A stretch of 64,000 nt of DNA from a virus. Within the stretch, counting starts at the first letter, position 1, and each line of letters begins with the position of its first letter. Location of the stretch: IMG/VR virus record IMGVR_UViG_3300010396_000048, positions 1-64,000 of that record. One strand, given 5' to 3'. Below are positions 5,126 to 63,838 of the stretch, piece after piece. The position numbers and the translations under genes were made by a program. Under the pieces are notes generated by a model that did no database searches, was not told where the DNA came from, and was given only the letters and a program-made list of their open reading frames with translations.

Positions 5126-5425
5126 TCATCCACGGTATTGAATCTCCTCTCGAATCTCGTTGGCTATGTCGATGCTGGTTTGCATCTCGCGCAACGAACG
5201 CTGCAGATGCTTTAGGGCCTCGTTTGGGCCACGCAGTTTCATGAACTCGGTGTCTCGAATCTCATAGGTCGTCCACCTATTGCTGCAGTCAGCGTTGGCG
5301 CACTTGCGGCGGCGCCGCACATGCTCGCGGGCCTCGCGGGAGTCGATGACCGCCGACTCGGGACAGCCGCACTCGTCACAAGCGGCGCTGGTTCCCCGGC
5401 GCTTGCCCTCATCCGATGGAGTCAT
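5126..5425 (-). CDS. NrdR-type zinc-ribbon protein
   Basis: 99 residues. The N-terminus has CDECGCPES, a D-S-R segment, and KCANADC with W-T-T-Y-E. This matches the zinc ribbon of NrdR and related phage proteins: CxxC...D-S-R...RR-R-x-C...C...R-x-T-T-Y-E. The ATP-cone domain of NrdR is absent; the rest is a helical tail. Possibly a small nucleic-acid-binding regulator. The start at 5425 overlaps the upstream stop by 4 nt, so the longer frame upstream is rejected. Confidence 0.6.
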   Translation of the reverse strand: MTPSDEGKRRGTSAACDECGCPESAVIDSREAREHVRRRRKCANADCSNRWTTYEIRDTEFMKLRGPNEALKHLQRSLREMQTSIDIANEIREEIQYRG

Positions 5426-5610
5426 GCTCGACACCGCGGATGATTGCCGAGGCAGTCCGTGGCGCTCTCGTGGCCCTGAGGGCGACCGCATCCGCAAAGC
5501 GGCAGCGTCGAGCCCGTTACCATGACAGGGACGTAACCCGGCCCGCAGGTGCATGACGCGACCCATCCAGCCCAAACTTTTCCGCAACGCGGGCAAATCC
5601 ACGGTTCCAT
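5422..5610 (-). CDS. Small zinc-ribbon protein, 62 aa
   Basis: Starts MEPWICPRCGKVWAGW and contains four CxxC or CxC pairs plus a terminal H-x-R-C. Probably binds two zinc ions. It sits 5 nt after the upstream stop and overlaps the next gene by 4 nt. Role unknown. Confidence 0.55.
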   Translation of the reverse strand: MEPWICPRCGKVWAGWVASCTCGPGYVPVMVTGSTLPLCGCGRPQGHESATDCLGNHPRCRA

Positions 5611-5615
5611 CTTGG

Positions 5616-5975
5616 TTACGCCGGGACCAGCGTGTGCGCGGCGATGAAGGCTCGGATGCGCTCCGCTACCGCGTGAGGGTTTCGCTCCCATTCCGAGTAC
5701 GCAAAGAGATGGAACAACTCATACGCATCGGCCAACGCTATTTCATAGAACGACTCGACGGCGTTCCAATTCACCAGCGATGCGCCGTAGCAGGGCACCT
5801 CGCCGCGCCTAAAGTCTCTGAGTCGTAGCCCCTCGGCGTTGTGCGCCGCATCCTGGCAGGCGTGGCCGATGACGCACGCGGTGGTCCCGCACTTCCAGAT
5901 TGCGAGGTCTACGGCTGCAGGGTCGAGCCGGTCGGCGAGATCGGCGGTCATCTTGAGGCGACGAATGTTTGGCAT
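5616..5975 (-). CDS. Hypothetical phage protein, 119 aa
   Basis: Starts MPNIRRLKMTADLADRL and contains a W-K-C-G-T-T-A-C-V-I-G-H segment that recurs in small early phage proteins of unknown function. The ATG shares a base with the upstream TGA (TGATG). The longer frame upstream is a shadow of the Ala/Ser repeats. Confidence 0.6.
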   Translation of the reverse strand: MPNIRRLKMTADLADRLDPAAVDLAIWKCGTTACVIGHACQDAAHNAEGLRLRDFRRGEVPCYGASLVNWNAVESFYEIALADAYELFHLFAYSEWERNPHAVAERIRAFIAAHTLVPA

Positions 5976-6724
5976 CACGCCGCCTCCAATAGTTCGATCA
6001 GCACGTCCGCCATGCGCGAATACGCCGCGCTCCACGCCGCGCCCGCCGCGCTCTCCGCGCTCTCCGCGCTCTCCGCCGCGCTCGCCGCGCTCTCCGCGCT
6101 CTCCGCCGCGCTCATCGCCGCGCTCATCGCCGCGCTCATCGCCGCGCTCCTCGCCTCGCTCCTCGCCGCGCTCGCCGCGCTCCACGCCGCGCTCCTCGCC
6201 GCGCTCGCCGCGCTCGCCGCGCTCCTCGCCTCGCTCGCCGCGCTCGCCGCGCTCATCGCCGCGCTCCTCGCCGCGCTCGCATCCATCGGGTCGCCCTTAG
6301 CCCAGGCCGCAACGAGCGCCGCAACATCCGAAACAGCCTGCTTCACCAGCGGATGGTTGATGCCAGGACTTATCGTTTCGTCAGTCAGTATTCGGTGTAA
6401 AAACTGCCATTGAACGGCCCCCAGGTCCGCTCCGGGTCGAATCGCGCCCATAAACCGCAACGGAAACTGTTTGGCAGCACCGTTGGGCAGCCCCTCAAAG
6501 AGCGTATCTTCGAGGTACGCGAGCGGTGCGGGAATCCCAAACAGAGCCTCATATCGCGAATGGTCCGAGTCGTGAATAGTGCAGCCGATGGCGCAGCCCT
6601 TGCCGTGCTCCCAATACTGACCTTTGACGATCTCGTCGGCGGCAGCATGCAGGCGAAGTTGTTCGAGGATTGCGTCTTTTTCCACTTGCGAATCGTGATA
6701 GGCGATGAGTTTGGTTGCCGTCAT
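5975..6724 (-). CDS. Protein with Ala-Ser repeat tail, 249 aa
   Basis: The N-terminal 150 residues form a folded-looking domain. Residues about 150-240 are a run of S-A-A, S-A-A-R, S-A-E and S-A-W repeats, then a short C-terminal helix. The start at 6724 has AAGGAA 7 nt upstream; an adjacent ATG at 6727 is also possible. Proteins with such Ala/Ser tails are common in phages of high-GC hosts and have no known function. Confidence 0.65.
   Translation of the reverse strand: MTATKLIAYHDSQVEKDAILEQLRLHAAADEIVKGQYWEHGKGCAIGCTIHDSDHSRYEALFGIPAPLAYLEDTLFEGLPNGAAKQFPLRFMGAIRPGADLGAVQWQFLHRILTDETISPGINHPLVKQAVSDVAALVAAWAKGDPMDASAARSAAMSAASAASEARSAASAASAARSAAWSAASAARSEARSAAMSAAMSAAMSAAESAESAASAAESAESAESAAGAAWSAAYSRMADVLIELLEAA
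6020..6285 (-). repeat. Ala/Ser-coding GC-rich tandem repeat
   Basis: A degenerate tandem array of the nonanucleotide-like unit cgccgcgctc and variants (ctccgcgct, ctcatcgcc). It encodes the Ala-Ser tail of the protein at 5975-6724. Copy number could vary by slippage. Confidence 0.75.
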
Positions 6725-6755
6725 CATTTCGTTCCTTTCGATTGCGGTGCAGGCG

Positions 6756-7154
6756 TCATGCCCACCGCTTTCCGACGTGGCAGTGACCTTGCGAGCAACG
6801 GTAAGCGTGGCAGGTTCGTCCCCGCGTGGACGCCGCCGAGTCGGCCTCCTGCATCGTTGCAAAGTGCTTTTTGGGTGAGCCATCTTTGCTCGAACATTCT
6901 CGGATTGACGACACCCACGACCCATCGGGAGCGTAGTGGTGCGTTGCAATAATCGCAGCAATACGCTGACTGCTCAACGGGTGCGCGATCGACCGCTGCC
7001 CAGGCTTTAGCCCTGTGTGCCGCGTCGCAACCGTCCAAGGATGCTTCGCCTTCGCGTGATTGACGTAAGGGCGCACCCATCCTGGGCGCCGATGGTCGTG
7101 GTAGTCCCACCGGAGCAGCGCATGGCATTCGACGCAGGAGAACCGGCCTTCCAC
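6756..7154 (-). CDS. Zinc-finger hypothetical protein, 132 aa
   Basis: The N-terminus has a C-V-E-C-H...H-x-x-x-x-H cluster resembling a C2H2-like finger. The C-terminus ends AYRCSQGHCHVGKRW after a F-A-T-M-Q-E-A-D segment, a small zinc-binding motif shared with the protein at 3317-3685. Function unknown. Confidence 0.6.
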   Translation of the reverse strand: MEGRFSCVECHALLRWDYHDHRRPGWVRPYVNHAKAKHPWTVATRHTGLKPGQRSIAHPLSSQRIAAIIATHHYAPDGSWVSSIRECSSKDGSPKKHFATMQEADSAASTRGRTCHAYRCSQGHCHVGKRWA

Positions 7155-8305: not shown

Positions 8306-9178
8306 TTATCCGAACAGCGCTGGCGAATCGCGCTCGATCACGGCCGCCTCAAGATTACCAACAGCCTGCTCGAAGTACGATTCCTTGAGTTCGACCCCAA
8401 CGAACCGCCGACGCATCTTGACCGCGACATACCCTTCGCTGCCGATGCCGGCGAACGGAGACAGCACCACGTCGCCAGGATTAGACCAAAGCATCGTGGC
8501 GCGTTCGATCACGTCTAGTTGCAACGGCGCGATGTGGCGCTCGTCTTTCTCGTCGCGTGCCGAGTCACGTTGAAGCGTTCGGCTGGCGTTAATATCCATC
8601 CAGACCGGAGAAGCGTATCGCTGCCAAAGATCGACCGGGAAATCCTCTGCGCGATGCGCTACGGGTTGCGGATTGTCGCCCGGCTTGCGAACGGTTATGA
8701 GGTAGTCGGGGATGCCCTGGCGCGACATTGCCGAGTCTTTCTTGAGCTGCTTCCACAGTAGCCCTAAAGCCTTGGTGCGTTGCATCGCCGTCACCGGATC
8801 TTTCCAAATGCAGACGCCCGAATGATAGATGAACCCGCCGTCCGAGAACGAGCGGAGCAGATCACCACGAAAGTCGTAGAGCCCGATGACCCCGTCCCGC
8901 GTTTTGCTTGTCGGCAGGTCCATGCAATGGAAACTCAGATTGCGGCCGGGCATCATCACGCGATAGAGTTCCGCCACCAAAAATCGGAAGTGCTCGAAGA
9001 ACTCCTTGGCGTCCTTACAGTTGCCCATGTCGCGATCGGAGGCAGAATAGGTGTAGAGGCTCGCGAAGGGTGGGCTAAAGATCGAGTAGCCGACCGAATC
9101 ATCCGGCAGTTCACGCAAGACTTCAATGCAGTCCCCGCGATACAAGGCGTAATCGTCGGTTACGATGCGGTCAGCCAC
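8306..9178 (-). CDS. DNA methyltransferase, N4-cytosine/N6-adenine type
   Basis: 290 residues. The catalytic motif IV SPPF lies at about residues 35-38, and the AdoMet-binding motif SPFAGIGSEGYVAV lies near residue 250. The order IV then I is that of beta-class amino-methyltransferases. The gene overlaps the end of the helicase gene by 19 nt, and this helicase-methyltransferase pairing is common in temperate phages. Likely modifies phage DNA to escape host restriction. No cognate endonuclease gene is seen beside it. Target sequence cannot be predicted. Confidence 0.9.
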   Translation of the reverse strand: MADRIVTDDYALYRGDCIEVLRELPDDSVGYSIFSPPFASLYTYSASDRDMGNCKDAKEFFEHFRFLVAELYRVMMPGRNLSFHCMDLPTSKTRDGVIGLYDFRGDLLRSFSDGGFIYHSGVCIWKDPVTAMQRTKALGLLWKQLKKDSAMSRQGIPDYLITVRKPGDNPQPVAHRAEDFPVDLWQRYASPVWMDINASRTLQRDSARDEKDERHIAPLQLDVIERATMLWSNPGDVVLSPFAGIGSEGYVAVKMRRRFVGVELKESYFEQAVGNLEAAVIERDSPALFG

Positions 9179-10515
9179 GCGGGTACCTCTACTTTCGGAT
9201 GGGCATAGTCACTGCGGATGGGAGCGTTTTCGTTGAAGCCGAGCATCGACTCGGCAACCATCGCGGCGCGCATCCGCTCTGCGTCCCGCTCCTTGCGCTT
9301 GAGATTTTCCAGAACGCTGCGCTCGCGTTCGGTCAGGACGAGGTGGCACTCGACGGGCCGCGTTTGCCCGAAGCGCCAACAACGCCGAATAGCCTGGTAA
9401 AACTGCTCCCACGAGTCCGTTACGGACGCGAACATCATCTTGTGGCAGACCTGGAAATTCATTCCGAGCCCGGCGATCTTGGGTTTCGTGAGGAGAACGC
9501 GGATGCGCCCATGCGCGAAGTCGATCAGGCGACGTTCCTTTGCGTCGCGATCGTCCGAGCCGCGAATCTCCACGGCGTCCGGAATGCGTGCGCGAATCGC
9601 GTCGGCCTCGGCGTTGAGATCACACCATATCAGCCACGGTCCATCGCCTTGTACCGTTTCCGCCACGCGGTCTGCCCGAATCTCGATACCCTCGCTACGC
9701 GCCTGCCGGCGCTCCACCAAGCCCTGCGCGGGCATGGCAAACAACATCCCTTCGGTCGTCGTGCCGGATTCGAGCAGGTGCTCGACCATCCGCAACTCCG
9801 GCAGATCGTATCGTGAATCATCGAAGCCGAGATCGCTAGGCTTCTGCATCACAACCGCCCACAATGCCACCCACCGCCAGAACGCAGTCTCGGCGTGACC
9901 CTTAAGTCTCCACTTTTGCGTATCGCCGCCGTCATGAACGAAGTACGTCGCGAGCATCTCAACCGCCGAGAGAATCCCAAGGAACTCGGCATGGTTGCCT
10001 AACTCCATCGTATCGTTCGGAGCGGGCGTAGCCGTGCAGCACAGACGGTATGGGGTGCGCGAGAACGCCTCGGTCAATGATCGGCGCGTCTTGCCATCGA
10101 CCGACTTAAGAATGCTCGACTCGTCCAGGACGACGCCAGCAAAGCGTGAGGCGCTGAACCGATCGAGGCGGTCGTAGTTCGTGATATTTAGACCAGGGCG
10201 CAGGTCGCGTTCCTCTTTGCAGAGCGTTACCGTTTCGCCAAGGAGGGCGGCTTCTTCGACCGTCTGCTGCGCCACAGCCAGCGGAGCCAAGATGAGTACG
10301 TCGCCGGCTTTCTGCACGACGTTAGCGCCCCAGGAAACTTGCATCGCCGTTTTGCCGAGTCCGGTATTGGCGAAGATCGCCGCACGCCCGCGACGCAAGG
10401 CCCACCGTACAATCGCCTTCTGGAAATCGAATAAGCGGTCGTGGAGTATCTCTCCGTTGAATCCGGTCGCTTCCGCAGCACGCTGTTTGCGCGCTAAAAA
10501 CTCCGCGTAGTTCAA
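9160..10515 (-). CDS. SF2 (SNF2-like) DNA helicase
   Basis: 451 residues. Motifs in order: Walker A ANTGLGKTA (49-57), motif II LDESS (130-134), motif III TATPAPND (161-168), and motif VI QAIRRCWRFGQ near residue 390. A full-length two-lobe ATPase of the compact phage type. The start is TTG, overlapping the stop of a 21-residue ORF (TTGA). Probably acts in replication or recombination with the adjacent RusA-like protein. Confidence 0.92.
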   Translation of the reverse strand: MNYAEFLARKQRAAEATGFNGEILHDRLFDFQKAIVRWALRRGRAAIFANTGLGKTAMQVSWGANVVQKAGDVLILAPLAVAQQTVEEAALLGETVTLCKEERDLRPGLNITNYDRLDRFSASRFAGVVLDESSILKSVDGKTRRSLTEAFSRTPYRLCCTATPAPNDTMELGNHAEFLGILSAVEMLATYFVHDGGDTQKWRLKGHAETAFWRWVALWAVVMQKPSDLGFDDSRYDLPELRMVEHLLESGTTTEGMLFAMPAQGLVERRQARSEGIEIRADRVAETVQGDGPWLIWCDLNAEADAIRARIPDAVEIRGSDDRDAKERRLIDFAHGRIRVLLTKPKIAGLGMNFQVCHKMMFASVTDSWEQFYQAIRRCWRFGQTRPVECHLVLTERERSVLENLKRKERDAERMRAAMVAESMLGFNENAPIRSDYAHPKVEVPAWLTAS

Positions 10516-10577
10516 TTTACGGTCCAGGGGATAGGCGCAGAGAAGGGATGCGCGTGAGGGGCGTACAGGATACTCAT
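10512..10577 (-). CDS. Micro-ORF, 21 aa, bridging RusA-like and helicase genes
   Basis: ATG overlaps the stop of the upstream gene by 4 nt, and its TGA overlaps the TTG of the helicase gene. The product starts MSILYAPHAHPF and has no family. The helicase TTG lacks a clear Shine-Dalgarno, so translation of this ORF may feed ribosomes to it. Confidence 0.35.
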   Translation of the reverse strand: MSILYAPHAHPFSAPIPWTVN

Positions 10578-11164
10578 TTGCGAATCAACTCCTTCGCGTA
10601 ATCGAGCATTACCAACTTGCCGCCGAGCACCGCGCAGCCGTCAGGTATTGGGTCACCCGGGCGCCATGCGGCGAGCACCGACTCTCGCGATGGAGTTGCC
10701 GTGCGTGTGCCACCCGGCACGGCGTCGGGTGTCAGTGGCCGCGCCGCGCCGACGCTTCCAAGACGCTTTGCGGCTGGCACTTCTTGGCGTTGCTTGACGA
10801 CGACGATCGCTAAACGGTGACCGCCCTCGGGTGCATAGCAAACGCTGGAAACAAACGGCGTCGCGAGCGAATCGTCATCCCACACGCCCGCGGCCGTCAA
10901 CGCATCAAGTTCGCATTTGCCCTGGTTGGAAGCGTCCCCACGACGACGGGTGACGACGTAGCGGACGATCATCGCGAAGCACTCGCAGCTCGCCTTCTGC
11001 CATCCGATCCGGGCCATCTCGGCTTCCGCCGCGGTCTTGACGTCGGCAAAGAGTCGTTTGTAGGCGTCGGACTTCTTGCCGGCGCGATGGCCGTTTGCAC
11101 CGACACTGTTGACCGAGGCATACCGGCTTCCGAGCGGCACGGAGATCGCAAGCACGTCGCTCAC
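10574..11164 (-). CDS. RusA-like Holliday junction resolvase (putative)
   Basis: 196 residues. The core R-R-R-G-D-A-S-N (76-80), E-L-D-A-L (86-89) and VWDDDS (95-99) matches the spaced acidic residues of RusA: RR-x-D-x-D-N...D-x-L...DD. The N-terminal N-G-H-R-A-G-K segment and position beside a helicase also fit. The C-terminal third is extra. Would resolve branched phage DNA. One canonical Asp in the first motif is replaced by Ser. Confidence 0.6.
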   Translation of the reverse strand: MSDVLAISVPLGSRYASVNSVGANGHRAGKKSDAYKRLFADVKTAAEAEMARIGWQKASCECFAMIVRYVVTRRRGDASNQGKCELDALTAAGVWDDDSLATPFVSSVCYAPEGGHRLAIVVVKQRQEVPAAKRLGSVGAARPLTPDAVPGGTRTATPSRESVLAAWRPGDPIPDGCAVLGGKLVMLDYAKELIRK

Positions 11165-11298: not shown

Positions 11299-11702
11299 GA
11301 TGCCTTCTCCCGAACGAGCGGACGCGACGGCGGAAGTCTCCGTGCAATCCCAACTTTGCTCGCCATATTGATCGCTTTGAATGCCGTGAACTCGCGCTTT
11401 AGCGGCACACGGACCCGATCGCCGTGCCGATCGTATTCCTCGTGGCAATCGCGGCACGCCGTGAGCCCCACGATGGCTTCGAAGCGGATGGATGGCGGCA
11501 AGTGCGGACGCCCGTAAATATGCGCTGCGTCCAGCGGGTTGCACGGATCGCCCTTGATGCCGTGCTCGACGTAACGAGATCCATCCCACCGCTCCATGCG
11601 GCAACGATGACCGTCGCGTTCCTTGACGTTCCGGGAGAAAGCAGCATCGAGCGCTGCTCCGTTGAAGGTTGCCGTCTTGCGACGCGCGCGCATCTGTTTC
11701 AT
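11295..11702 (-). CDS. HNH-like endonuclease
   Basis: 135 residues. V-K-E-R-D-G-H-R-C at about 26-34, L-D-A-A-H-I-Y at 57-63, and T-A-C-R-D-C-H near 81-87 match the layout of small HNH proteins: C, then AH, then C-x-x-CH. The usual Asn before the CxxC is not evident, so activity is uncertain. The start at 11702 overlaps the upstream stop (ATGA). Confidence 0.6.
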   Translation of the reverse strand: MKQMRARRKTATFNGAALDAAFSRNVKERDGHRCRMERWDGSRYVEHGIKGDPCNPLDAAHIYGRPHLPPSIRFEAIVGLTACRDCHEEYDRHGDRVRVPLKREFTAFKAINMASKVGIARRLPPSRPLVREKAS

Positions 11703-12037
11703 GCCGACGCCGCCTGCATGACCTTCGCCCATCGGAGTAACCCCTCGAAGGTAAGGAATATGGGGATACCGATTCGCACGGCTTCGGCTTGCTCGATGTC
11801 GGCGCCGCGACTCTTACCAGGCAACCGCAAGAAGGCATCGCACGCCGGCAAAAACGCAAGATCGATTTTCATCCAATCTTCCCACGGACGTGGGGTCATT
11901 GTGTGCCAGAAGTGCGAAATATGCGGAACGAACGGCACCAAGCCAGCATCGAGCAGTTGATTTCCGGCGACAATCGCGTTGTGCGTATTCTCGCAAGGAT
12001 CCCCGTAGCTATACGGTCCGCTGACGTAAACTTTCAC
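11699..12037 (-). CDS. DUF4406 / nucleoside 2-deoxyribosyltransferase-like protein
   Basis: 112 residues starting VKVYVSGPYSYGDP. It then has N-x-x-x-A-I-x-A-G-x-x-L-L-x-A-G, V-P-H-I, and the motif CDAFLRLPGKSRGADIE. This is the signature of small nucleoside-deoxyribosyltransferase-fold proteins (DUF4406 or DUF1937 type). May act on nucleotides or NAD-like substrates; substrate unknown. The GTG overlaps the upstream stop. Confidence 0.65.
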   Translation of the reverse strand: MKVYVSGPYSYGDPCENTHNAIVAGNQLLDAGLVPFVPHISHFWHTMTPRPWEDWMKIDLAFLPACDAFLRLPGKSRGADIEQAEAVRIGIPIFLTFEGLLRWAKVMQAASA

Positions 12038-12204
12038 GCCACACCTTTCTCGCGTTTGGAAAAACAAGTCCGACACATGTGCTTCATCCCGTTGGCAGTT
12101 CGCACGGTCCGCATGCTCGACGGCGACGCTTGCGCCGGGCATGTCACGCAGGTTTCACTTCGATCGCTACGACGCCGCAGTGTGAGCCCATACCCCACCG
12201 TCAT
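12034..12204 (-). CDS. Small zinc-ribbon protein, 56 aa
   Basis: Contains ETCVTCPA and HMCRTCFSK, one zinc ribbon in a basic protein. The start at 12204 overlaps the upstream stop by 4 nt. Function unknown. Confidence 0.55.
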   Translation of the reverse strand: MTVGYGLTLRRRSDRSETCVTCPAQASPSSMRTVRTANGMKHMCRTCFSKREKGVA

Positions 12205-13074: not shown

Positions 13075-13389
13075 TCATGCGCCGTATCCTTGCGGTGCCC
13101 GGACCTGGGTCTGCAGCATCGACGCCTGCTTGGAACGAGTCCGCACGGCAACCTCGACCTTCTTCAGATTGCGCTTGGCATCGATGACCCGGGCTTTATG
13201 CTCGCGCGACGGCTCGCGCGTAAATATCATCTCGGCATCCGCCAGGACATCGATCGCTAGCATCTGCACCCCGGCAAGTCGTCCCGTTTCGCCAATCAGA
13301 TCGTCAAGCAATTGGCACTTGACACCGTAGGCGAGCGTACGAAGCTCGGCGTTCGAGTAGCGGTCGATGTCCAAAGCAGATACGTCCAT
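13075..13389 (-). CDS. Hypothetical helical protein, 104 aa
   Basis: Its ATG overlaps the TAA of the upstream SWIM-protein gene (TAATG). It lacks cysteine clusters and is rich in Ala, Leu, Arg and Glu, probably helical. Function unknown. Confidence 0.55.
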   Translation of the reverse strand: MDVSALDIDRYSNAELRTLAYGVKCQLLDDLIGETGRLAGVQMLAIDVLADAEMIFTREPSREHKARVIDAKRNLKKVEVAVRTRSKQASMLQTQVRAPQGYGA

Positions 13390-14258
13390 TAGAACGGGAT
13401 GTCGTCGTCTTCGTCGTCGAAGGTTTCGGCCGGCGGCGGAGGCGCTGCGGCGGCCTGAACATCGCGCAGACGAACTTCGCCAATGCGAACCTCGTCCGGC
13501 TTACCTTCCTTGCCCACGACCGTTAGCCAAATGGGAATCGGAACGATCGCTTCGCCGGCGGGGCCTTGGCGCGTCGGCAGACTGTCGTACCAGGCTTTGA
13601 TGTCCTCGGGGTCTTGCAGACCCGAGATCGCACTGAGACGCACCCACATCGTCGACGCCTTGGCCACCTTGCCGTTTGGGAGTTGCTTCGGAGCGGCCAA
13701 AGACCGCGTCACCCACTCCTCTTGCACAGTGTTTTTTCCGGTGGCGTAACGCAGCGCGACTTTTTCTTGATGCTTCTTTCCCGTGCCGGCGCACGCGCGG
13801 CAGTCCTCGCCGTTCTTTATGCGTGAACCGCTGCAAATGCCGCAGGGGAACTGTGATTCTTCCTTGGAAATCTCGGGTCCGATCCCGAGGAAATAGGACT
13901 TGTGATCGCCGCGCGCGACCGTAATGACGGTTCGCTTGAAATCGGTGTTTCGTTCGCGCGGGATGGCTCCATCGAGAATGCTCATGGTGTGTTTGGGTTC
14001 CTTTTCAAGATTGCCGATGCACCATTGGTTGACTGCGATCGCGTGGCGACAGATGTTGCCGTATTGAGACGCGACGCAGCTGCACCGGACTTCGTAGGTG
14101 TTTCTATCGACGGTAACGTCGTAGACCCCAGAACGGCCTGGAACGTGGAACGCAAGCTCGTGGCGCGTGTCCTTATCGACGTTCCGGTAGACCGTGAGTG
14201 TGAGCGCGCTGATCCGTGGGATCCGCTGCAGGCTCTGAGAGAGGTGCCGAAAATGCAT
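13389..14258 (-). CDS. SWIM zinc-finger protein with SSB-like acidic C-terminal tip
   Basis: 289 residues. C59-x-C61-x8-C70-x-H72 is a SWIM finger. CGIC (139-142) and CRACAGTG (153-160) form a DnaJ-like zinc cluster. Residues after 170 form a domain ending in a Pro-rich linker and the tail DDEDDDIPF. That tail is the protein-recruiting tip of bacterial and phage single-strand-binding proteins. I infer a phage ssDNA-binding or recombination mediator that docks host SSB partners. No OB-fold is obvious from sequence. Confidence 0.65.
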   Translation of the reverse strand: MHFRHLSQSLQRIPRISALTLTVYRNVDKDTRHELAFHVPGRSGVYDVTVDRNTYEVRCSCVASQYGNICRHAIAVNQWCIGNLEKEPKHTMSILDGAIPRERNTDFKRTVITVARGDHKSYFLGIGPEISKEESQFPCGICSGSRIKNGEDCRACAGTGKKHQEKVALRYATGKNTVQEEWVTRSLAAPKQLPNGKVAKASTMWVRLSAISGLQDPEDIKAWYDSLPTRQGPAGEAIVPIPIWLTVVGKEGKPDEVRIGEVRLRDVQAAAAPPPPAETFDDEDDDIPF

Positions 14259-14266
14259 GGCATGGG

Positions 14267-14755
14267 TTAGGCCACGGCCGACAGCGCGGGAGGCTTCGGC
14301 GCGATAATGCCGGCGATCACGTCGAGCAACTCACGCTGCGACGTTACGAGATGGTCGGCCATCTTCCACATCAACTCCGGCTCGAATACCCGCCGGCCGT
14401 GGTCACCAATGTAGACGATCGTCGTCTTTCCCGCACCGACCGCATAGCCAAGTTCGAGATTCGCGCTGATACCGGCTGGCATCAAGAGCAGACAGACATC
14501 GCACTCGCGAAGCGCGGTCATGTCGTAACTGAAGCCCTGCTCGGCGATCGGATCGGCCAGCGCAATCTTGAGGGATTCACCGTCCCACGGTTTGGCGCGG
14601 GCAGCGGTTTGATGCCATGCGAAGCCGTTGTCGCCGGGGACCGGATTGCGAAAATCGTAAACGCTCTGGTCGAGTTCGCGGAGCAGCTTGACGTAGGCGG
14701 GCTGCTCGTCATTGCGCCACGAGGACGCGACGTACCAACGCAACGTGCGACTCAT
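14267..14755 (-). CDS. Nucleoside deoxyribosyltransferase/TIR-like fold protein
   Basis: 162 residues. The start RTLRWYVASSWRN and the late motif LLLMPAGISANLELGYAVG with G-K-T resemble nucleoside 2-deoxyribosyltransferase and TIR-like proteins (beta strand plus A-S-S-W; P-A-G...E-x-G-Y-A-x-G). Glu in the last motif is the likely catalytic residue. Could hydrolyse a nucleotide glycosidic bond; substrate unknown. The start at 14755 overlaps the upstream stop. Confidence 0.6.
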   Translation of the reverse strand: MSRTLRWYVASSWRNDEQPAYVKLLRELDQSVYDFRNPVPGDNGFAWHQTAARAKPWDGESLKIALADPIAEQGFSYDMTALRECDVCLLLMPAGISANLELGYAVGAGKTTIVYIGDHGRRVFEPELMWKMADHLVTSQRELLDVIAGIIAPKPPALSAVA

Positions 14756-14958
14756 GCGCGCAGCCACCGATAGACCCCATAGCAAACACCAACTACTGCG
14801 AGAATGATCAATCCGAGAAGGACGGATAACGCGATGCCGGTGTAAATATCACCGTCGGCGAAATTATCACGAATGAAGCCCAGCATGGCGGGCAGGGTGA
14901 CGAGAACCCCGATCGTCATGGCAGCGGCAGCGCCTATTGCCAACAGTTGATCGCTCAT
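14752..14958 (-). CDS. Small membrane protein, two helices
   Basis: 68 residues with hydrophobic helices at about 5-27 and 40-64, ending YRWLRA. Overlaps both neighbours by 4 nt (ATGA). Position in the early region argues against a holin role, though the topology would fit one. Confidence 0.6.
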   Translation of the reverse strand: MSDQLLAIGAAAAMTIGVLVTLPAMLGFIRDNFADGDIYTGIALSVLLGLIILAVVGVCYGVYRWLRA

Positions 14959-15101
14959 CGAACCATCATCCTGTAGAACGGCTCAACCAGCCGGTAAAGG
15001 GGTACAAACAAGGCGTTCCACTCCCACTCGAACAGCAGTGACGATAGGTACATGTCGAGCGTCAAGCCAACGGCTAAGAGACGTAGCTTGCGGTGCGTCA
15101 T
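14955..15101 (-). CDS. Small hypothetical protein, 48 aa
   Basis: Starts MTHRKLRLLAVGLTLDMY and is hydrophobic with several aromatics (FEWEWN). Probably membrane associated. Supported by ATGA overlaps at both ends. Confidence 0.5.
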   Translation of the reverse strand: MTHRKLRLLAVGLTLDMYLSSLLFEWEWNALFVPLYRLVEPFYRMMVR

Positions 15102-15361
15102 CGTTCGGGGTCCTCGACCTTCGAGCACACGACGTCAGGATTCGTGCGAACGTGCTTGTGATAGACCGTCCCGATCGACGCACCCGGCGCCATCATCATC
15201 TCGTACGCCGCTTTCAGGTCGGCCGTGGGGCCGTTCTCGCGGTACTCGTAAACGGTAAGCTCGCTGCCGGAAGAACGCACGAACTCAACGTGCATGATGC
15301 GGAGTTCCTCGTCGAAGCCGACGGAAGCGAGCGACGTCGACGCGACCTTCACGCGGTTCAT
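15098..15361 (-). CDS. KTSC-domain protein
   Basis: 87 residues. V-A-S-T-S-L-A-S-V-G-F-D near the start, then L-x-V-Y-E-Y and G-T-V-Y-H-K-H-V, match the KTSC domain (named for lysyl-tRNA synthetase C-termini). It is common as a stand-alone phage protein with unclear function. The start overlaps the upstream stop. Confidence 0.7.
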   Translation of the reverse strand: MNRVKVASTSLASVGFDEELRIMHVEFVRSSGSELTVYEYRENGPTADLKAAYEMMMAPGASIGTVYHKHVRTNPDVVCSKVEDPER

Positions 15362-15921
15362 TTGGCCACCGACTTGCTCGGCTTCCACACCAGCTTCGTA
15401 CCGAGTGATTCGCGCGTCTGAATAGCTTTCAGCGCCGCACCTAAGCCCGGCGTATCGCCGTACTTCTTCACCAATGCCGTGATCGAGACGCGCGCGCCCA
15501 ACTGATCGTGGGCAGGCTTGACGATCGTCTCCTCGGGAATGTGCTTAATGATTTTGGCGGCTTCTTCGTCCTTGCCGGCGGCGCGTAAAAGCTCCGCGGC
15601 CGTACGAGCAGCGTCGAGGTTGTCCATGTACGCCGTGAACTGCTCCTCCAACGCCACCCGCTCCATTCCGGGCACGGCAAGCTCCGTCGCGTTGTTCTCG
15701 CGCATCCGGCGCTCGATCTCGGCTTTGCCGGCGTCTTCGATCGCCCGGAAGAAGTCCATCAAGCGATGGCGTTCCTCGGCTGCGGCGTTGACGTACAGAA
15801 CGATGGCGTCGTTCGTCATCTCGCGCCATGCGATTTCCTTATTGCGCGGCAGGTCGATCAGTTGCGGCGGCTCCTCCGTAACGCGGAACTCGCCTTCGTG
15901 AACCTCTAGTTGTGCTGACAT
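15358..15921 (-). CDS. Hypothetical helical protein, 187 aa
   Basis: Start at 15921 with GGAGGTG 5 nt upstream, the best ribosome site in this part of the operon. Strongly helical and charged, probably with a coiled coil around residues 40-110. No family recognised. Confidence 0.6.
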   Translation of the reverse strand: MSAQLEVHEGEFRVTEEPPQLIDLPRNKEIAWREMTNDAIVLYVNAAAEERHRLMDFFRAIEDAGKAEIERRMRENNATELAVPGMERVALEEQFTAYMDNLDAARTAAELLRAAGKDEEAAKIIKHIPEETIVKPAHDQLGARVSITALVKKYGDTPGLGAALKAIQTRESLGTKLVWKPSKSVAK

Positions 15922-16714: not shown

Positions 16715-17308
16715 TCAGGCCGCCACGGAGGAGGCCGTACGCATCCGCACGATCTCGTCCCGATTCTCGACCGACCCGATCAGCGCGGCTTCCCAAATCT
16801 CTTTGAGCGTTTCTTGTACCGCAGCGCGCTTGGCCGAGTCGGTCTCTTTCTTCAGCAGTTCCAGCCCACGCTTCAGGTCTTCCGAAGCATGGGAAAGCGT
16901 TACCGGGAGAAGGTCATCCTCGCGCGATGCGCGGACGAGCTTTTCGTTTTCCAGGAACGCGCAATGCGGGCACAGGCCGGACGCGTCGCCTACCGTTTTG
17001 CCGCACCGCGGATGAATCACGCAGTCGGTGCAGGTCGAACAATGCGTCAGGTTCTCCGAGAGAACCGCGACATTGCGCGTTCCTTCGTAGTTTCGGTCGC
17101 CGTCGTCAAACTCGATGCCGTGGCATTTGGCGCAGAGGCGCGCGCTGGCGCCGCGGCCATCGGCGTTGGCAACGTGATCGTCTTCCGGCTCGCCCGTAAC
17201 TCTGGCTGCCCACTCCGCCTCGTCGATGATGATGTCGAAGGGGATGTCATCGACCGCGGGCTTGGACGCTTGCGCGGTATAAGGAAGTGCGATATGGTCG
17301 TTATGCAT
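16715..17308 (-). CDS. Multi-zinc hypothetical protein, 197 aa
   Basis: CAKCHG, CSTCTDC, H-P-R-C-G-K and CPHC motifs spread over residues 60-125 suggest two or more zinc sites, followed by a charged helical tail. The start at 17308 has AAGGAG 8 nt upstream. Function unknown. Confidence 0.55.
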   Translation of the reverse strand: MHNDHIALPYTAQASKPAVDDIPFDIIIDEAEWAARVTGEPEDDHVANADGRGASARLCAKCHGIEFDDGDRNYEGTRNVAVLSENLTHCSTCTDCVIHPRCGKTVGDASGLCPHCAFLENEKLVRASREDDLLPVTLSHASEDLKRGLELLKKETDSAKRAAVQETLKEIWEAALIGSVENRDEIVRMRTASSVAA

Positions 17309-17321
17309 TGATGGCTCCTTA

Positions 17322-17528
17322 CTAGCCGTTGGTGCTCGCGGCACGATCGTTACGAGCGGTCGTGCCGTTTTTGTAGTTTTGCGCTGCTTCGGCGCGCAGA
17401 ATCAAATCGACGATCTGCCGCACGTTCGCGTCATCAGCGTTGTCGATGTAGATGCGAGCGCGGCCGGGTGCCGCGGTGGTGCCGCGTACCTTCCGCCCAC
17501 TCGTAGCATCTGTTATGGTCAGCGACAT
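17322..17528 (-). CDS. Small hypothetical protein, 68 aa
   Basis: Composition is coherent (RARIYIDNADDANVRQIVDL) with a beta-alpha pattern. It lies 1 nt after the upstream stop. No family recognised. Confidence 0.5.
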   Translation of the reverse strand: MSLTITDATSGRKVRGTTAAPGRARIYIDNADDANVRQIVDLILRAEAAQNYKNGTTARNDRAASTNG

Positions 17529-17891: not shown

Positions 17892-17921
17892 ATTATAGCC
17901 TAGTGGCTTACTGTTTGGCAA
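17892..17921 (-). promoter_or_regulatory. Leftward early promoter
   Basis: On the minus strand, TTGCCA (17921-17916), an 18-nt spacer and a perfect TATAAT (17897-17892). Transcription should start near 17885, at or next to the ATG at 17884. It lies in the 73-bp intergenic region opposite the repressor gene. Confidence 0.75.
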
Positions 17922-17957: not shown

Positions 17958-18443
17958 ATGCCTAGCCGCGACGGAAAGACCGCCGAGAAGGGCGATTTGG
18001 AGCAGCAGACCTTCTACGGAAGGTTGACGATGGCGGCTAGCGAGGCCGGCAAGACCGAGTCCGAAGTCGCCGCCATGCTTGGCTATAAGAACTCCCAGAG
18101 CGCCAAGCGGGTGATGATGGGCGACCGCGGGTCGGTGAAGTTCCCGGCCGGCCTGAAGCTCTGCGAGGAGTTGGGGATCGACCCCTATTGGTTGGCGTTC
18201 GGGCGGCCTAGGCGGACCGTTTCCTCCGGTGCGATCGAAGCCAATCCTCCATCTGAATCACCACCGCGGGACCCGCTGCTGGCGATTCTGGCACACACGT
18301 TAGTGCAGATTGCCCAGCAGGTCGGGCTGAACATCGACACTCTGAAAGAGCACATTCCAGAGGCGTTTGACACCCCTCCGGAAGCTGGTACGCCCTCCGA
18401 ATCTCCGACGAAATCAAAGCGCGGAAAGCGGGGAATTGCGTGA
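17958..18443 (+). CDS. Phage repressor-like DNA-binding protein
   Basis: 161 residues. The N-terminal 75 residues fit an XRE-type helix-turn-helix (G-K-T-E-S-E-V-A-A-M-L-G-Y, then A-K-R-V-M-M-G-D-R, ELGIDPYWLAFG). A Pro/Ser linker and a helical C-terminal segment (residues about 100-125) probably dimerise. There is no LexA-type protease domain, so induction by self-cleavage is unlikely. Divergent from the early operon and upstream of the integrase. Confidence 0.7.
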   Translation: MPSRDGKTAEKGDLEQQTFYGRLTMAASEAGKTESEVAAMLGYKNSQSAKRVMMGDRGSVKFPAGLKLCEELGIDPYWLAFGRPRRTVSSGAIEANPPSESPPRDPLLAILAHTLVQIAQQVGLNIDTLKEHIPEAFDTPPEAGTPSESPTKSKRGKRGIA

Positions 18444-19168: not shown

Positions 19169-19360
19169 GTGCCGACTGACGAGGAGATACGGACCGCCCA
19201 ACTCGCTGCAGCAAAAGCGTCGCTTGAACTGAGCAAAACGCAAGCCGGTTGCATGTCGATGGCTGGCGGCTGCGGCGCCCTGATTCTCCTCCCTATTGGC
19301 ATCATCGTTATTCTGATCGCCGTCGCACTCATCGCCGACGGTTTTGGCCTCTGGAAATGA
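19169..19360 (+). CDS. Small membrane protein, 63 aa
   Basis: GTG start. One hydrophobic helix about residues 35-58 (CGALILLPIGIIVILIAVAL) after a charged N-terminus. Its stop overlaps the integrase ATG by 4 nt, so the two are coupled. Confidence 0.55.
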   Translation: MPTDEEIRTAQLAAAKASLELSKTQAGCMSMAGGCGALILLPIGIIVILIAVALIADGFGLWK

Positions 19361-20850
19361 GCGCCACCGCGTGGTCGTACCTCGTCGTATCGAGCGATCA
19401 GCAAGCCGAAACCCTCGACGCACAACAACGTTGGGCCGAGGAGACCGCCGCCGCGCAAGGCTGGCGCATCGAGCGCGTGTTTCGGGGCGTTTCCACAGGA
19501 AAACTCGGCGTCCGCAAACTCCTCTCGGACCTCATCTCCGAACTGCAAGCCATTCCGAAGGGCGCTCGGCCGGCGCGCATCCTCCTGACGCGCATCGATC
19601 GGTTAGGACGCGGCGACTCGCTCGACGTCATGGGGGCTATTGCTGAACTGCGGCGCCTTGGGCCGGTGCTTCACACACGCGAAGATGGCGACGTCCGCCT
19701 GCAGCGCGCAAGCGATGCGATCTTGCCGGCCATCAAATCGATCGTGGCCGCCGTCGAAAACGAGGTGCGCGCCGACCGGGTGCGCGCTGGCCATGCCCGA
19801 CGTCGGGCCGCCGGCAAGCACCTTGGAGCCGTTCCCTACGGCGTGGTACTCGTCGACGGTAAACCGGTTCCCTACGAGCCCGAGGCAGCGATCGTGCGCG
19901 AGATATTCGACCTCTTGGCTCAGCGATGGGGGCTAACCCGTATTGCGAACCATATCCGCATGAAGGCGCCACCAAAGCGGCTGTACGACGGCGCCGAACG
20001 GCCCCTCACCTGGGGTGCGTCGACGATCCGCAGTCTTTATGCCTCGGAGGTCGTGCGGCGGGTCGTCGTGTCACCGGAAGCGGTTGCGCGCGCGGAAGCG
20101 GCCAGAGTCGACAACTTCCGCTTCGCCCCGACTGGCGAATGGGAGTGGCCGCTGCGCGGCGCCGTGCACTGCACCTGCGGGCACCTGCTCGTCGGTCACG
20201 CGACCGGGAACGCCCCCTACCGAATTCGGTACTACCGTTGCCGTCACCACCCGCAAGAGCCGGGGAAGGAGTCGACGAACCGGCCGGGCCATCGGGCGGA
20301 CGCCTTGGAAGCGGCGTTCCTCCAGATCCTCCGGGAGATTGGGGTGCAACCCGACCTTCTGGCACCGGAGCCCTCGGCGCGGGACGCTGAGGCCATTGCC
20401 GTTCGAATCAACGAAGCGCGCAAGCGGCTGGCTAAGGTCGAGGCCCGTCGACGACGGGCATGTGAGTTCGCGGAAGACGGGGTCTATACCGCGACGGACC
20501 TGCGGGAACGGCTTCGCAAGATCGACGCGGAAAAGCAAGGCGTCGTCGCGGAGTTGGAGCGGCTCGAGATCGATCACGCCGCGTTGGGTACCGATTCGGC
20601 CCTTCGGCAGCGGCTCTCAACGGTTTTCGGGCGCCTGCCAGACCTCTGGAAGACGCAGTCGACGGAGTGGCGCCAGGACGTGGCTCGGGCCATTGGCAAA
20701 CTCGCCTGCGGCCTCTGGGCGCATCCTAGCCGGCGCGGGGAGCTGTTTCTCGGGCATGACGCGGCCTTGCGAGGGTTCAAAATCAAGAGCACGTATGCGA
20801 CACGCGAACGTATGTTTTCACGTGAAATGCTTAAGATTTTGGAGCGGTAG
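19357..20850 (+). CDS. int: Large serine recombinase (phage integrase)
   Basis: 497 residues. Resolvase domain with Y8-L-V-V-S12-S-D-Q-Q (nucleophile S12) and R-I-D-R-L-G-R (79-85). The recombinase domain spans about 145-235, a zinc ribbon has C272-x-C274...C295-x-H297, and a coiled coil lies about 360-440. The usual Arg two residues before the nucleophile (Y-x-R-V-S) is Val here. Full length for the family. Expected to integrate the phage by attP x attB crossover; I could not define attP. The start at 19357 overlaps the upstream stop. Confidence 0.9.
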   Translation: MSATAWSYLVVSSDQQAETLDAQQRWAEETAAAQGWRIERVFRGVSTGKLGVRKLLSDLISELQAIPKGARPARILLTRIDRLGRGDSLDVMGAIAELRRLGPVLHTREDGDVRLQRASDAILPAIKSIVAAVENEVRADRVRAGHARRRAAGKHLGAVPYGVVLVDGKPVPYEPEAAIVREIFDLLAQRWGLTRIANHIRMKAPPKRLYDGAERPLTWGASTIRSLYASEVVRRVVVSPEAVARAEAARVDNFRFAPTGEWEWPLRGAVHCTCGHLLVGHATGNAPYRIRYYRCRHHPQEPGKESTNRPGHRADALEAAFLQILREIGVQPDLLAPEPSARDAEAIAVRINEARKRLAKVEARRRRACEFAEDGVYTATDLRERLRKIDAEKQGVVAELERLEIDHAALGTDSALRQRLSTVFGRLPDLWKTQSTEWRQDVARAIGKLACGLWAHPSRRGELFLGHDAALRGFKIKSTYATRERMFSREMLKILER

Positions 20851-22297: not shown

Positions 22298-22398
22298 GGC
22301 ATCTCCCCATAGTGGGCATCTCGCGGCCACTCACACCGCTTGCAGACGGTATCAGCGGCGTATCCGATCGGGAACTCGCACGGCTCAGGCTGCCGCAC
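22225..22398 (-). CDS. Small Cys-rich protein overlapping the ClpP-like gene (tentative)
   Basis: A GTG frame begins 14 nt before the end of the phosphoesterase gene and runs 57 codons, the last 73 nt inside the protease gene. Its first part, PCEFPIGYAADTVCKRCEWP followed by R-D-A-H, resembles small phage zinc-knuckle proteins and fills an otherwise empty 87-nt gap. The second half looks like a shadow. Confidence 0.4.
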   Translation of the reverse strand: MRQPEPCEFPIGYAADTVCKRCEWPRDAHYGEMPWRESRPTKSPTLSRRRSSHGYGR

Positions 22399-23824
22399 GC
22401 GCCGTCTTGCCGCCCGGAAGCGGCGCTCGCTTCGCCTCGAACTTCTGGCCCCGATAGAGCGCCACACCGTCGAGAATGGGAATGAACTCGACCCGGTGCT
22501 GCCCGGTATCTTCGAGGATCTCGACCACGGCGATGCCGTTCACCCACTCCGATACAAAGCCGCGGTCGGAAGGCGTGCGCGTGCGCTGAATGGCGCCCTT
22601 GGCCTTCACGCGTTCGAGCGAGCAGAGCGCGCCGATTTCGTACAGCGTAAAGGTTTGGTGGCCGAACGGCGTCCGAACGGTAAAGGTTTCTTCCCGGTGC
22701 CGGTGCGTGTGACCGGCGATCACGGAGGCTTGATAGGCCCCCTTCTTCTTCGGGTCGTGCACGACGACGAGTGCATGGCGCCCTTCGATCAGCCACGCCT
22801 CCGATCCGGGCCACATACCGCATTGCTCGAACCCGAGTTCGTCGAGTCGGAGCAGATGTGGAAACGAGAGGTCTGGCCACGATTCCGGCGTCGCGTTGGC
22901 CGGCCGTAGACCGAACGCCGCTCGGGCGTTCTGTTGAACGTAGGTCGCCAGGCGTTTCCAGTCGTGGTTCCCGTCAACCAATCTATAGCGTTTTGCTATA
23001 GTTTTGCCAGCGCGGCGGCGGGGCGAACCCATGGCGCTCTTGACGTTCGCGAGGTAGTTGTGGCCCCAATTGATCGACTCTTGCGTGACACGCCAGAACT
23101 CCTCAACCTGCAAATATTTTGAGAACTCGGACATGTCGAGCAGATCGCCGACGTGGGTGAAACCGTCCGGCTGAATCGCAGCCGTCAGTTGGAGTGCGAC
23201 GTCGACGGCGTCCTCGTCGTGAATAGCCTGGAGGATGTAGCTTTCGCGGTGTCCGTCAAACTCTCGCGAGTCGAGCACGCGTTGGAATCCGCCCTGGGTG
23301 TCGGGGTGCACGACCTCGATACGTAAGCCTCGCGGAACGATGATGGTCGGTGCCGTGTATTTTATGGTGGCTGGTTTAGCTGGCTGAACGACGGGCCACG
23401 CTGGACCGCTCTCCCATTTCGGGCTGAGCATGACGGTGACGTTCTTGGAACTCAGGCGCGTAACAACCGGCTCGTCGTCCGGGCCTTTGGTCAAACCTTC
23501 GTGGAAACCGCTCTTGATCTTGACGTTGTCGATCTTGTCGATCGCGTCGAGTGGGATGTTCGCTTCGTCGAGCAGGTTCTTGATTTGGTTCAGCTTATCG
23601 GCTTCGGCGCCGTCGTAAATCTTCGGAACGTCAGCGGCACCCTGCCCGTCCAGGGCTCTCCGCATACAGTGGATGACGGCTTCGAGTGACGGCTTGCGAC
23701 CGTGCTCATCGCGAAACTGCGCATGAATGGCGCGCGCGGCCGCAGTCTTATTACCGTACTGCGCGACGAGATCGAGCGCGATGCGTTTTGTCAGGGTTCT
23801 CGAGGTGTACTGGGGTTCGCTCAC
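22385..23824 (-). CDS. Calcineurin-like metallophosphoesterase with N-terminal HTH-like domain
   Basis: 479 residues. Metal motifs H-P-D-T-Q (173-177, in place of D-x-H), GDLLD (226-230), GNHD (285-288) and GHTHR (371-375). The first 65 residues (GNKTAAARAIHAQFR...EAVIHCMRRAL) look like a helix-turn-helix of the homing or early-protein type. Could process nucleic acid or nucleotides. It follows a terminator at 23911, so probably has its own promoter or is reached by readthrough. Confidence 0.8.
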   Translation of the reverse strand: MSEPQYTSRTLTKRIALDLVAQYGNKTAAARAIHAQFRDEHGRKPSLEAVIHCMRRALDGQGAADVPKIYDGAEADKLNQIKNLLDEANIPLDAIDKIDNVKIKSGFHEGLTKGPDDEPVVTRLSSKNVTVMLSPKWESGPAWPVVQPAKPATIKYTAPTIIVPRGLRIEVVHPDTQGGFQRVLDSREFDGHRESYILQAIHDEDAVDVALQLTAAIQPDGFTHVGDLLDMSEFSKYLQVEEFWRVTQESINWGHNYLANVKSAMGSPRRRAGKTIAKRYRLVDGNHDWKRLATYVQQNARAAFGLRPANATPESWPDLSFPHLLRLDELGFEQCGMWPGSEAWLIEGRHALVVVHDPKKKGAYQASVIAGHTHRHREETFTVRTPFGHQTFTLYEIGALCSLERVKAKGAIQRTRTPSDRGFVSEWVNGIAVVEILEDTGQHRVEFIPILDGVALYRGQKFEAKRAPLPGGKTARAAA

Positions 23825-62802: not shown

Positions 62803-62912
62803 ACGGTGCCACCGAACGGCTCGTCATCGTCCCACGGTTTCACGAACCGCGACACCGTAAGCACCCCGAGCGCCAGCAGAATCAAGCCGAACACCAGGAA
62901 GCGCCGTATCAC
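62799..62912 (-). CDS. Small membrane peptide, 37 aa
   Basis: GTG overlaps the stop of the lipoprotein gene (GTGA). One hydrophobic helix (R-R-F-L-V-F-G-L-I-L-L-A-L-G-V-L) and a short acidic tail. Its stop overlaps the stop of the TPR regulator gene on the other strand. Role unknown. Confidence 0.45.
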   Translation of the reverse strand: MIRRFLVFGLILLALGVLTVSRFVKPWDDDEPFGGTV

Positions 62913-63838
62913 GGCCCAACCACCGCCCCACCAGGGAATGCCCCGGCCGGCAGGGTGATAACATACGGAACGGACGCCGAATCCGATTCGACCACCACGA
63001 TCGCGGGTTGTCCCGTGTGGATGTTCGAGAACGGAATGGCCACCGCGCCGTCGTTAGCCGTTAGGAATTTAATGTCGGCGTAGGGCTGGAAATCTTGCCA
63101 CCGCTCGCGCTTGTAGAGCGAGGAGAACGTCGCCACCACGCTCAGGTCGCCCTGGATGATGTTGTCGCCGTTGTAGACCGCTACACCACCGCAGCCGCCG
63201 CTGGCCCAAATCACCTGGTAAATCGGGTAGACCTCGGCCAGAAACACGGTCTGCCCAGGAACATTGACATCCGAGAACACCGTGCCGTCTTGGTTCACTG
63301 CCACGCCACCGCATAGCGTGTTGGTGCCGGGAGCCGAGATGGAGCGTATCTGCGTATAGTTGTCCGGTGCGTACTCACGGATGACCGGAGGCCCATCTGC
63401 GGGCTCGTTGCCTACGAACAAGTCCCCGTTAGCGTCGGCCGTGACGCTCGTCGGGTGCTCGACGTTCGTGGTAATCGTTCCGGTCTGAGCCGTTGCACCG
63501 TCGTTGAAGACGGCAATCTTTGAATCGGCCCACTGCGTGACGTAGACGCTGCCATCTGCGTCAACCGTTACCCCGAGCGGCACGTTGAGGTCCGCCGAGC
63601 GAACGGGCTGCGGGTTCGTCACCCCGTAGGGGTACACCCACAGCTTCATGTTGCCGCGGTCGGTCACATAGACGTATCGCGGAACGCCCGAACTGTACAC
63701 GCGCTTGTGGCGCGCAATCAAAGACGGCGGAGTCGATTGCTGCGGCGCAGGGGGAATGTACGACTGCCCGGATCCACCGAGATCCCAACAGCCGGCCAAC
63801 GCCAAGAGCGCCAGAGGCAATAGAAAACGCAAGCGCAT
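62909..63838 (-). CDS. Beta-propeller lipoprotein (NHL/SMP-30-like)
   Basis: 309 residues. Lipobox L-L-A-L-A-G-C with Cys17. Repeated blades such as Y-V-T-D-R-G-N-M-K-L-W-V-Y, L-G-V-T-V-D-A-D-G-S-V-Y-V-T and P-T-S-V-T-A-D-A-N-G-D-L-F-V-G are NHL-type. Exported and membrane-anchored. May be a phage moron or a host gene at the prophage edge. Confidence 0.7.
   Translation of the reverse strand: MRLRFLLPLALLALAGCWDLGGSGQSYIPPAPQQSTPPSLIARHKRVYSSGVPRYVYVTDRGNMKLWVYPYGVTNPQPVRSADLNVPLGVTVDADGSVYVTQWADSKIAVFNDGATAQTGTITTNVEHPTSVTADANGDLFVGNEPADGPPVIREYAPDNYTQIRSISAPGTNTLCGGVAVNQDGTVFSDVNVPGQTVFLAEVYPIYQVIWASGGCGGVAVYNGDNIIQGDLSVVATFSSLYKRERWQDFQPYADIKFLTANDGAVAIPFSNIHTGQPAIVVVESDSASVPYVITLPAGAFPGGAVVGP

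What the first reader, a model, noticed from the sequence alone, without database searches (positions are those of the whole stretch)
13389..14258. SWIM-finger protein carrying an SSB-type C-terminal tip
The tail DDEDDDIPF is the SSB interaction peptide, while the body has a SWIM finger and a DnaJ-like zinc cluster rather than an obvious OB fold. SWIM domains occur in recombination mediators such as the Shu complex. This could be a new architecture of phage ssDNA-binding or recombination protein.
Basis: partly seen in the sequence, partly recalled or inferred. Interest (0 to 1): 0.75.

Follow-up and report, generated by a model that had tools for sequence, protein, structure and literature searches.

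The report
Zinc-finger phage protein with SSB tail

Summary
ORF 13389-14258 (-) is a real 289-aa early gene with a SWIM finger (PF04434, above cut-off), two CxxCxG zinc half-sites, a Pro/Ala linker and the C-terminus FDDEDDDIPF. The tail is not chance: about 1e-5 are expected in this window, and of 10,600 mechanical ORFs from fetched phage loci only 10 end this way, the other nine being SSBs. Profile comparison with SSBs aligns the tail and nothing else. The 68-kb phage record has no detectable SSB, RecT, ERF or Sak4. A relative (58% identical terminase) has a Sak4-type annealing protein in the comparable early slot. In most sampled phages that share this phage's SNF2-type helicase and have such a tail, the SSB gene lies upstream of the helicase on the same strand, as this gene does. 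It most likely works as an SSB-like or mediator hub. It is not an SSB family member (no OB core detected), and the Shu-complex link rests on the SWIM motif alone. No homologue was found in viral contigs, GTDB genomes, phages, plasmids or PDB, and the structure models were too poor to decide the fold. Tail conservation and ssDNA binding are therefore untested. It is a new variant of a known kind.

The parts
13389..14258 (-). 289-aa SWIM / zinc half-site / SSB-tail protein
   Evidence: ORF, codon statistics, overlap of its stop with the next gene's ATG
14028..14114 (-). SWIM finger, residues 49-77, CSC-x8-CRHAIA
   Evidence: PF04434 23.2 bits, E=4.9e-5; the N-terminal fragment alone 25.8 bits, E=7.5e-6
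13779..13844 (-). two CxxCxG zinc half-sites, residues 139-160 (CGICSG...CRACAGTG), a probable single zinc site
   Evidence: sequence; only weak DnaJ / phrog_3931 matches
13464..13778 (-). C-terminal domain of unknown fold, residues 161-265; predicted strand-strand-helix-strand-strand
   Evidence: single-sequence AlphaFold2 of residues 160-289, mean pLDDT 48.7; no Pfam or PHROG match
13389..13421 (-). SSB-type C-terminal tip FDDEDDDIPF plus stop, after an Ala/Pro linker
   Evidence: hhalign to SSB alignment, prob 80-87, E 1.4e-5 to 4.4e-6, tail only; tail census
13075..13389 (-). overlapping downstream gene, 104 aa, no family
14267..14785 (-). upstream gene, nucleoside deoxyribosyltransferase
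   Evidence: phrog_12607 E=1e-39
15098..15388 (-). KTSC-like gene (sub-threshold), shared with relative G035 next to its Sak4-type gene
   Evidence: PF13619 20.5 bits, below cut-off 25; tblastn to L091 27%, E=9.6e-7
10574..11164 (-). RusA-like Holliday junction resolvase of the same early operon
   Evidence: phrog_34 E=4e-11
9160..10515 (-). SNF2-type DNA helicase of the same early operon
   Evidence: phrog_62 E=3e-62
8306..9178 (-). DNA methyltransferase next to the helicase
   Evidence: phrog_67 E=3e-39
17892..17921 (-). promoter-like site (11/12) between repressor and early operon
   Evidence: consensus match only; the number found in the region equals the shuffle mean

Best explanation
It is an early phage DNA-metabolism protein that works like an SSB hub. 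Its body is proposed to sit on phage single-stranded or branched DNA through the SWIM finger, the zinc site and/or the C-terminal domain, while the flexible Ala/Pro linker and the DDEDDDIPF tip dock host proteins that normally recognise SSB (RecO, PriA, RecQ, RecG, ExoI, DnaG type), bringing them to phage replication and recombination intermediates. Shown: the tail, the SWIM finger, the early-operon position, and no detectable SSB or annealing protein elsewhere in the record. Inferred: that the tail docks partners, that the body binds DNA, and that it fills the SSB or mediator role.
For: Tail census: 10 of 10,600 ORFs, the other nine all SSBs. hhalign to SSBs aligns the tail only. No PF00436, DUF669, RecT, ERF or Sak4 match in the 68-kb record. 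Relative G035 has a Sak4-type annealing protein (phrog_124, E=1e-10) after a shared KTSC-like gene. Among loci with a relative of the same helicase, seven of nine SSB genes with the strict tail, or eight of ten counting L067, lie upstream or downstream on the helicase strand, most of them 0.3-4.5 kb upstream; the window gene lies 2.9 kb upstream. Neighbours are RusA, helicase and methyltransferase. Published: the six-residue tail of phage HK620 SSB, itself a distant SSB, is needed to load Sak4 (PMC5928155); grafting the SSB tail onto PriB raised ssDNA affinity and stimulated PriA (PMC8509808).
Against: No ssDNA-binding domain is detected: SSB-core HMM 2.6 bits, reached by 53 of 2000 shuffles. 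No homologue, so no conservation test. Lack of a phage SSB is common in this sample, so absence is weak evidence. Gene order with G035 is loose: one shared gene at 27% identity plus a RusA-type gene. Searches with phrog_743 had no positive control.
Confidence: 0.5

Rival explanations
1. Recombination mediator or annealing partner: it does not coat ssDNA but loads host RecA/RecO (or an unrecognised phage annealing protein) onto host-SSB-covered ssDNA, somewhat like lambda Orf or T4 UvsY, using the SSB-type tip to swap places with host SSB.
For: It lies in an early region with RusA and helicase genes; G035 has a Sak4-type gene in the comparable region; SWS1/Shu2 proteins share the CXC..CXHXXA motif and regulate RAD51 with Rad51 paralogs (PMC6316741).
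Against: No Sak4/RecA-like, RecT or ERF partner found in this record; the motif is shared by SWIM fingers in general; no sequence match to solved structures, which should include Shu-complex proteins.
Confidence: 0.27
2. Decoy or anti-host factor: the tip competes with host SSB for nucleases or helicases (for example RecQ, RecJ, ExoI) to shield phage DNA, and the body need not bind ssDNA.
For: The tip matches the canonical bacterial SSB-Ct, which many host proteins dock onto (PMC10164576); the gene is early and this phage has no other tail-bearing ORF.
Against: Two zinc sites and a 289-aa body are more than a decoy needs; the only defence-library match (PDC-S62) covers just the SWIM finger.
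Confidence: 0.13
3. The C-terminal domain is a highly diverged OB fold, so this is an SSB with an added SWIM and zinc N-terminus.
For: Predicted order strand-strand-helix-strand-strand in residues 160-265, then linker and tail; borderline SSB-core score.
Against: Low-confidence model (pLDDT 49), no fold match, no Pfam or PHROG match to the domain, hhalign aligns the tail only.
Confidence: 0.3

Closest known systems
Bacterial/phage SSB (PF00436)
   Same: C-terminal tip FDDEDDDIPF after a flexible linker; early-gene position upstream of the same helicase family in several phages
   Different: No detectable OB core; adds a SWIM finger and zinc half-sites; 289 aa instead of about 150
Distant phage SSBs (phrog_743; HK620 SSB / DUF669)
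   Same: Body unlike PF00436 but SSB-type acidic tail; in HK620 the tail mediates partner loading (PMC5928155)
   Different: No DUF669 match here; phrog_743 did not match, but that genome search had no positive control; those SSBs were not found to carry SWIM
SWIM-finger proteins, Shu2/SWS1
   Same: CXC..Xn..CXHXXA motif
   Different: No Shu2/SWS1-specific similarity, no Rad51-paralog-like partner found in this record; carries an SSB tail
Phage annealing proteins (Sak4, RecT, ERF)
   Same: Comparable early-operon region; some RecT proteins end in an acidic -PF tip (L076)
   Different: No family match

Membership tests
SSB (PF00436) | OB-fold ssDNA-binding core | tested here: not met
   No Pfam match; SSB HMM 2.6 bits, 53/2000 shuffles reach it; hhalign aligns the tail only. 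The fold itself remains undetermined.
SSB (PF00436) | Acidic C-terminal tip ending in -DDIPF | tested here: met
   FDDEDDDIPF; hhalign E 1.4e-5 to 4.4e-6 to the SSB tail
SSB (PF00436) | ssDNA binding and oligomer formation | not testable with these tools
   Needs purified protein
SWIM finger (PF04434) | CxCxnCxH profile above the curated cut-off | tested here: met
   23.2 bits against cut-off 19.6
Shu2/SWS1 | SWIM motif CXC..Xn..CXHXXA | tested here: met
   CSC-x8-CRHAIA; motif as given in PMC6316741
Shu2/SWS1 | Rad51-paralog partner | tested here: not met
   No Sak4-like (phrog_124) match in the record; the control search rang in all 14 genomes. A host partner is not excluded.
DnaJ | J domain and four CxxCxGxG repeats | tested here: not met
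   Two half-sites, no J domain; DnaJ models E=0.04-0.05
Phage annealing proteins (RecT, ERF, Sak4) | Family profile match | tested here: not met
   No match in the whole record

The most novel reading that the evidence does not exclude
The protein founds a new class of phage ssDNA-binding or mediator protein in which a SWIM/zinc body with no OB fold replaced the SSB core while the SSB partner-docking tip was kept or acquired.
Probability: 0.25. Interest if true: 0.75.

Novelty: new variant of a known kind. Interest (0 to 1): 0.5.

Why it matters
Phages have several unrelated SSBs, and some carry a bacterial-type partner-docking tip. A SWIM/zinc body with that tip would show that the tip is a portable module that can be joined to an unrelated DNA-binding body, and would link SWIM fingers, known from eukaryotic Rad51 regulators, to bacterial SSB partners in one small testable protein.

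Tried and rejected
Homologue searches all failed: viral contigs with the full protein, an N-terminal fragment, a zinc-spacing DNA pattern (24 loci, none related) and a SWIM DNA pattern (4 loci, all chance); GTDB genome contigs; phage tblastn; plasmids; PDB; 53 virus records. The collection scans need exact 8-residue matches, so distant homologues may exist. A weak tblastn hit in phage 186 orf97 (E=3) is not in the annotated protein's SWIM-like context and was dropped. Structure: full length pLDDT 36, C-terminal part pLDDT 49, Foldseek uninformative. PADLOC PDC-S62 matches only the SWIM finger. OB-core homology to SSBs was tested and not supported. A Shu-complex assignment was rejected as resting on a generic SWIM motif. 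Major capsid and terminase searches found only a handful of close relatives, so gene-order comparison rests mainly on G035.

Full report
What is there. The window is 64,000 bases of a 68,021-base virus record. It is a temperate tailed phage: repressor at 17958-18443 (+), serine integrase at 19249-20850 (+), tape-measure, capsid, portal and terminase genes at 36-58 kb. The gene of interest, 13389-14258 (-), encodes 289 residues. Its stop codon overlaps the ATG of the next gene, and codon statistics trained on other genes of the phage favour only this frame, so it is very likely a real gene.

Parts of the protein. Residues 49-77 are a SWIM finger (PF04434, 23.2 bits, cut-off 19.6; 25.8 bits for the N-terminal fragment). 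Residues 139-160 hold CGICSG and CRACAGTG, two half-sites that could bind one zinc; similarity to DnaJ is weak, so 'DnaJ-like cluster' is an overstatement. Residues 161-265 match no Pfam or PHROG family. An Ala/Pro linker leads to FDDEDDDIPF.

Is the tail more than chance? With the amino-acid make-up of the window's ORFs, a tip of the form [ILVM]PF with at least five acidic residues in the seven before it is expected about 1e-5 times among 418 ORFs. Among 10,600 mechanical ORFs of 60 or more residues in the window and the loci fetched up to then, 10 end in an SSB-type tip by the script's criterion. The other nine are SSBs: six match PF00436, two match phrog_743 'single strand DNA binding protein' (L035, L054), and L037 is identical in sequence to L035. 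This sample was gathered through the helicase and terminase genes, not at random, but it shows the tip to be a good marker of SSBs. Profile comparison with six SSBs aligns only the last 13-16 residues (prob 80-87, E 1.4e-5 to 4.4e-6).

Is the body an SSB? Not by sequence. An SSB-core HMM gives 2.6 bits, a score that 53 of 2,000 shuffles reach, and pairwise scores are unremarkable. AlphaFold2 without homologues gives pLDDT 36 for the whole protein and 49 for residues 160-289; the latter shows strand-strand-helix-strand-strand, an order an OB fold would allow, but Foldseek finds nothing. The fold is open.

Surroundings. Reading on the minus strand from a promoter-like site at 17921-17892 (a consensus match no more frequent than in shuffles), the early genes run in one direction: genes of unknown function, a KTSC-like gene, a nucleoside deoxyribosyltransferase, this gene, two unknown genes, a second deoxyribosyltransferase, an HNH-like gene (weak), RusA, an SNF2-type helicase and a methyltransferase. 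No SSB (PF00436), DUF669, RecT, ERF or Sak4 was found in the record. phrog_743 also gave nothing, but that search had no positive control. Many sampled phages lack an SSB gene near the helicase, so absence alone is weak evidence.

Comparison with relatives. The terminase lineage has only a handful of members. One, G035 (80.8 kb), shares the KTSC-like gene (27%, E=1e-6), followed about 0.8 kb later by a Sak4-like annealing protein (phrog_124, E=1e-10) and then a RusA-type gene. The window has the SWIM gene in the comparable stretch. Among loci with a relative of this phage's helicase, SSB genes with such tails lie upstream on the helicase strand in L004, L028, L030, L035, L037, L057 and L067 (273-4,547 nt), downstream on that strand in L051, and on the other strand in L054 and L061. 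The window gene ends 2,874 nt upstream of the helicase on the same strand. Position therefore fits an SSB or recombination role without proving it.

Literature. The SSB of phage HK620, a distant SSB, needs its six C-terminal residues to load Sak4 on ssDNA, and up to 80% of sak4 genes are next to an ssb gene (PMC5928155). Fusing the SSB C-terminal domain to PriB raised its ssDNA affinity and stimulated PriA (PMC8509808). Most studied SSB-interacting proteins dock on the SSB tip (PMC10164576). The SWS1/Shu2 SWIM motif is CXC..Xn..CXHXXA (PMC6316741), which this protein fits, as SWIM fingers generally do. Full-text searches for SWIM together with phage SSB or phage recombination found no paper on such a protein.

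How it most likely works. Most likely the body holds the protein on phage ssDNA or branched intermediates and the tip recruits host SSB-interacting proteins, so it acts as an SSB-like hub (0.5). A mediator that works on host-SSB-coated DNA (0.27) and a decoy for host SSB partners (0.13) remain. The question of an OB fold is separate from these and open. The tail, the SWIM finger and the context are shown; DNA binding, partner docking and the biological role are inferred.

Limits. The protein is an orphan in every collection searched, so neither tail conservation nor a good structure model could be obtained. The collection scans need exact short matches and would miss distant homologues.

Noticed in passing
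window 19249-20850 (+) and 22385-23824 (-): A serine integrase lies near a metallo-phosphoesterase gene (phrog_20266, E=5e-42). From memory, the Bxb1 recombination directionality factor gp47 is phosphoesterase-related, so this gene is a lead for the phage's directionality factor.
   Followed up: no
L090:14164-14622 (-) and L090:19621-19938 (-): Relative G035 has two small ORFs with SWIM-like motifs (CTCADGHAEKWCKH and CSCPDGAQDKPWCPH), without an SSB tail; only the second was a scored, sub-threshold PF04434 hit.
   Followed up: partly
window 11699-12142 (-) and 14267-14785 (-): Two different nucleoside deoxyribosyltransferase genes flank the region, which may hint at modified nucleotides or nucleotide salvage.
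   Followed up: no
window 5126-5602 (-): ORF with an NrdR-type zinc ribbon (PF22811, 42.6 bits).
   Followed up: no
window 5616-6961 (-): Low-complexity ORFs: a (GERGDER)-type repeat at 5616-6185 and an Ala/Ser-rich repeat at 5975-6961.
   Followed up: no
window 62909-63838 (-): NHL-repeat lipoprotein-like gene shared with G035 (31% identity to L091:9010-9822).
   Followed up: no
window 16715-17344 (-): Early protein of unknown function with an internal AVDDIPF stretch that resembles the SSB tip but is not C-terminal.
   Followed up: no
L076:4882-5775 (+): RecT-like protein (phrog_148) ending in DEEGIPF, an SSB-like tip on an annealing protein.
   Followed up: partly
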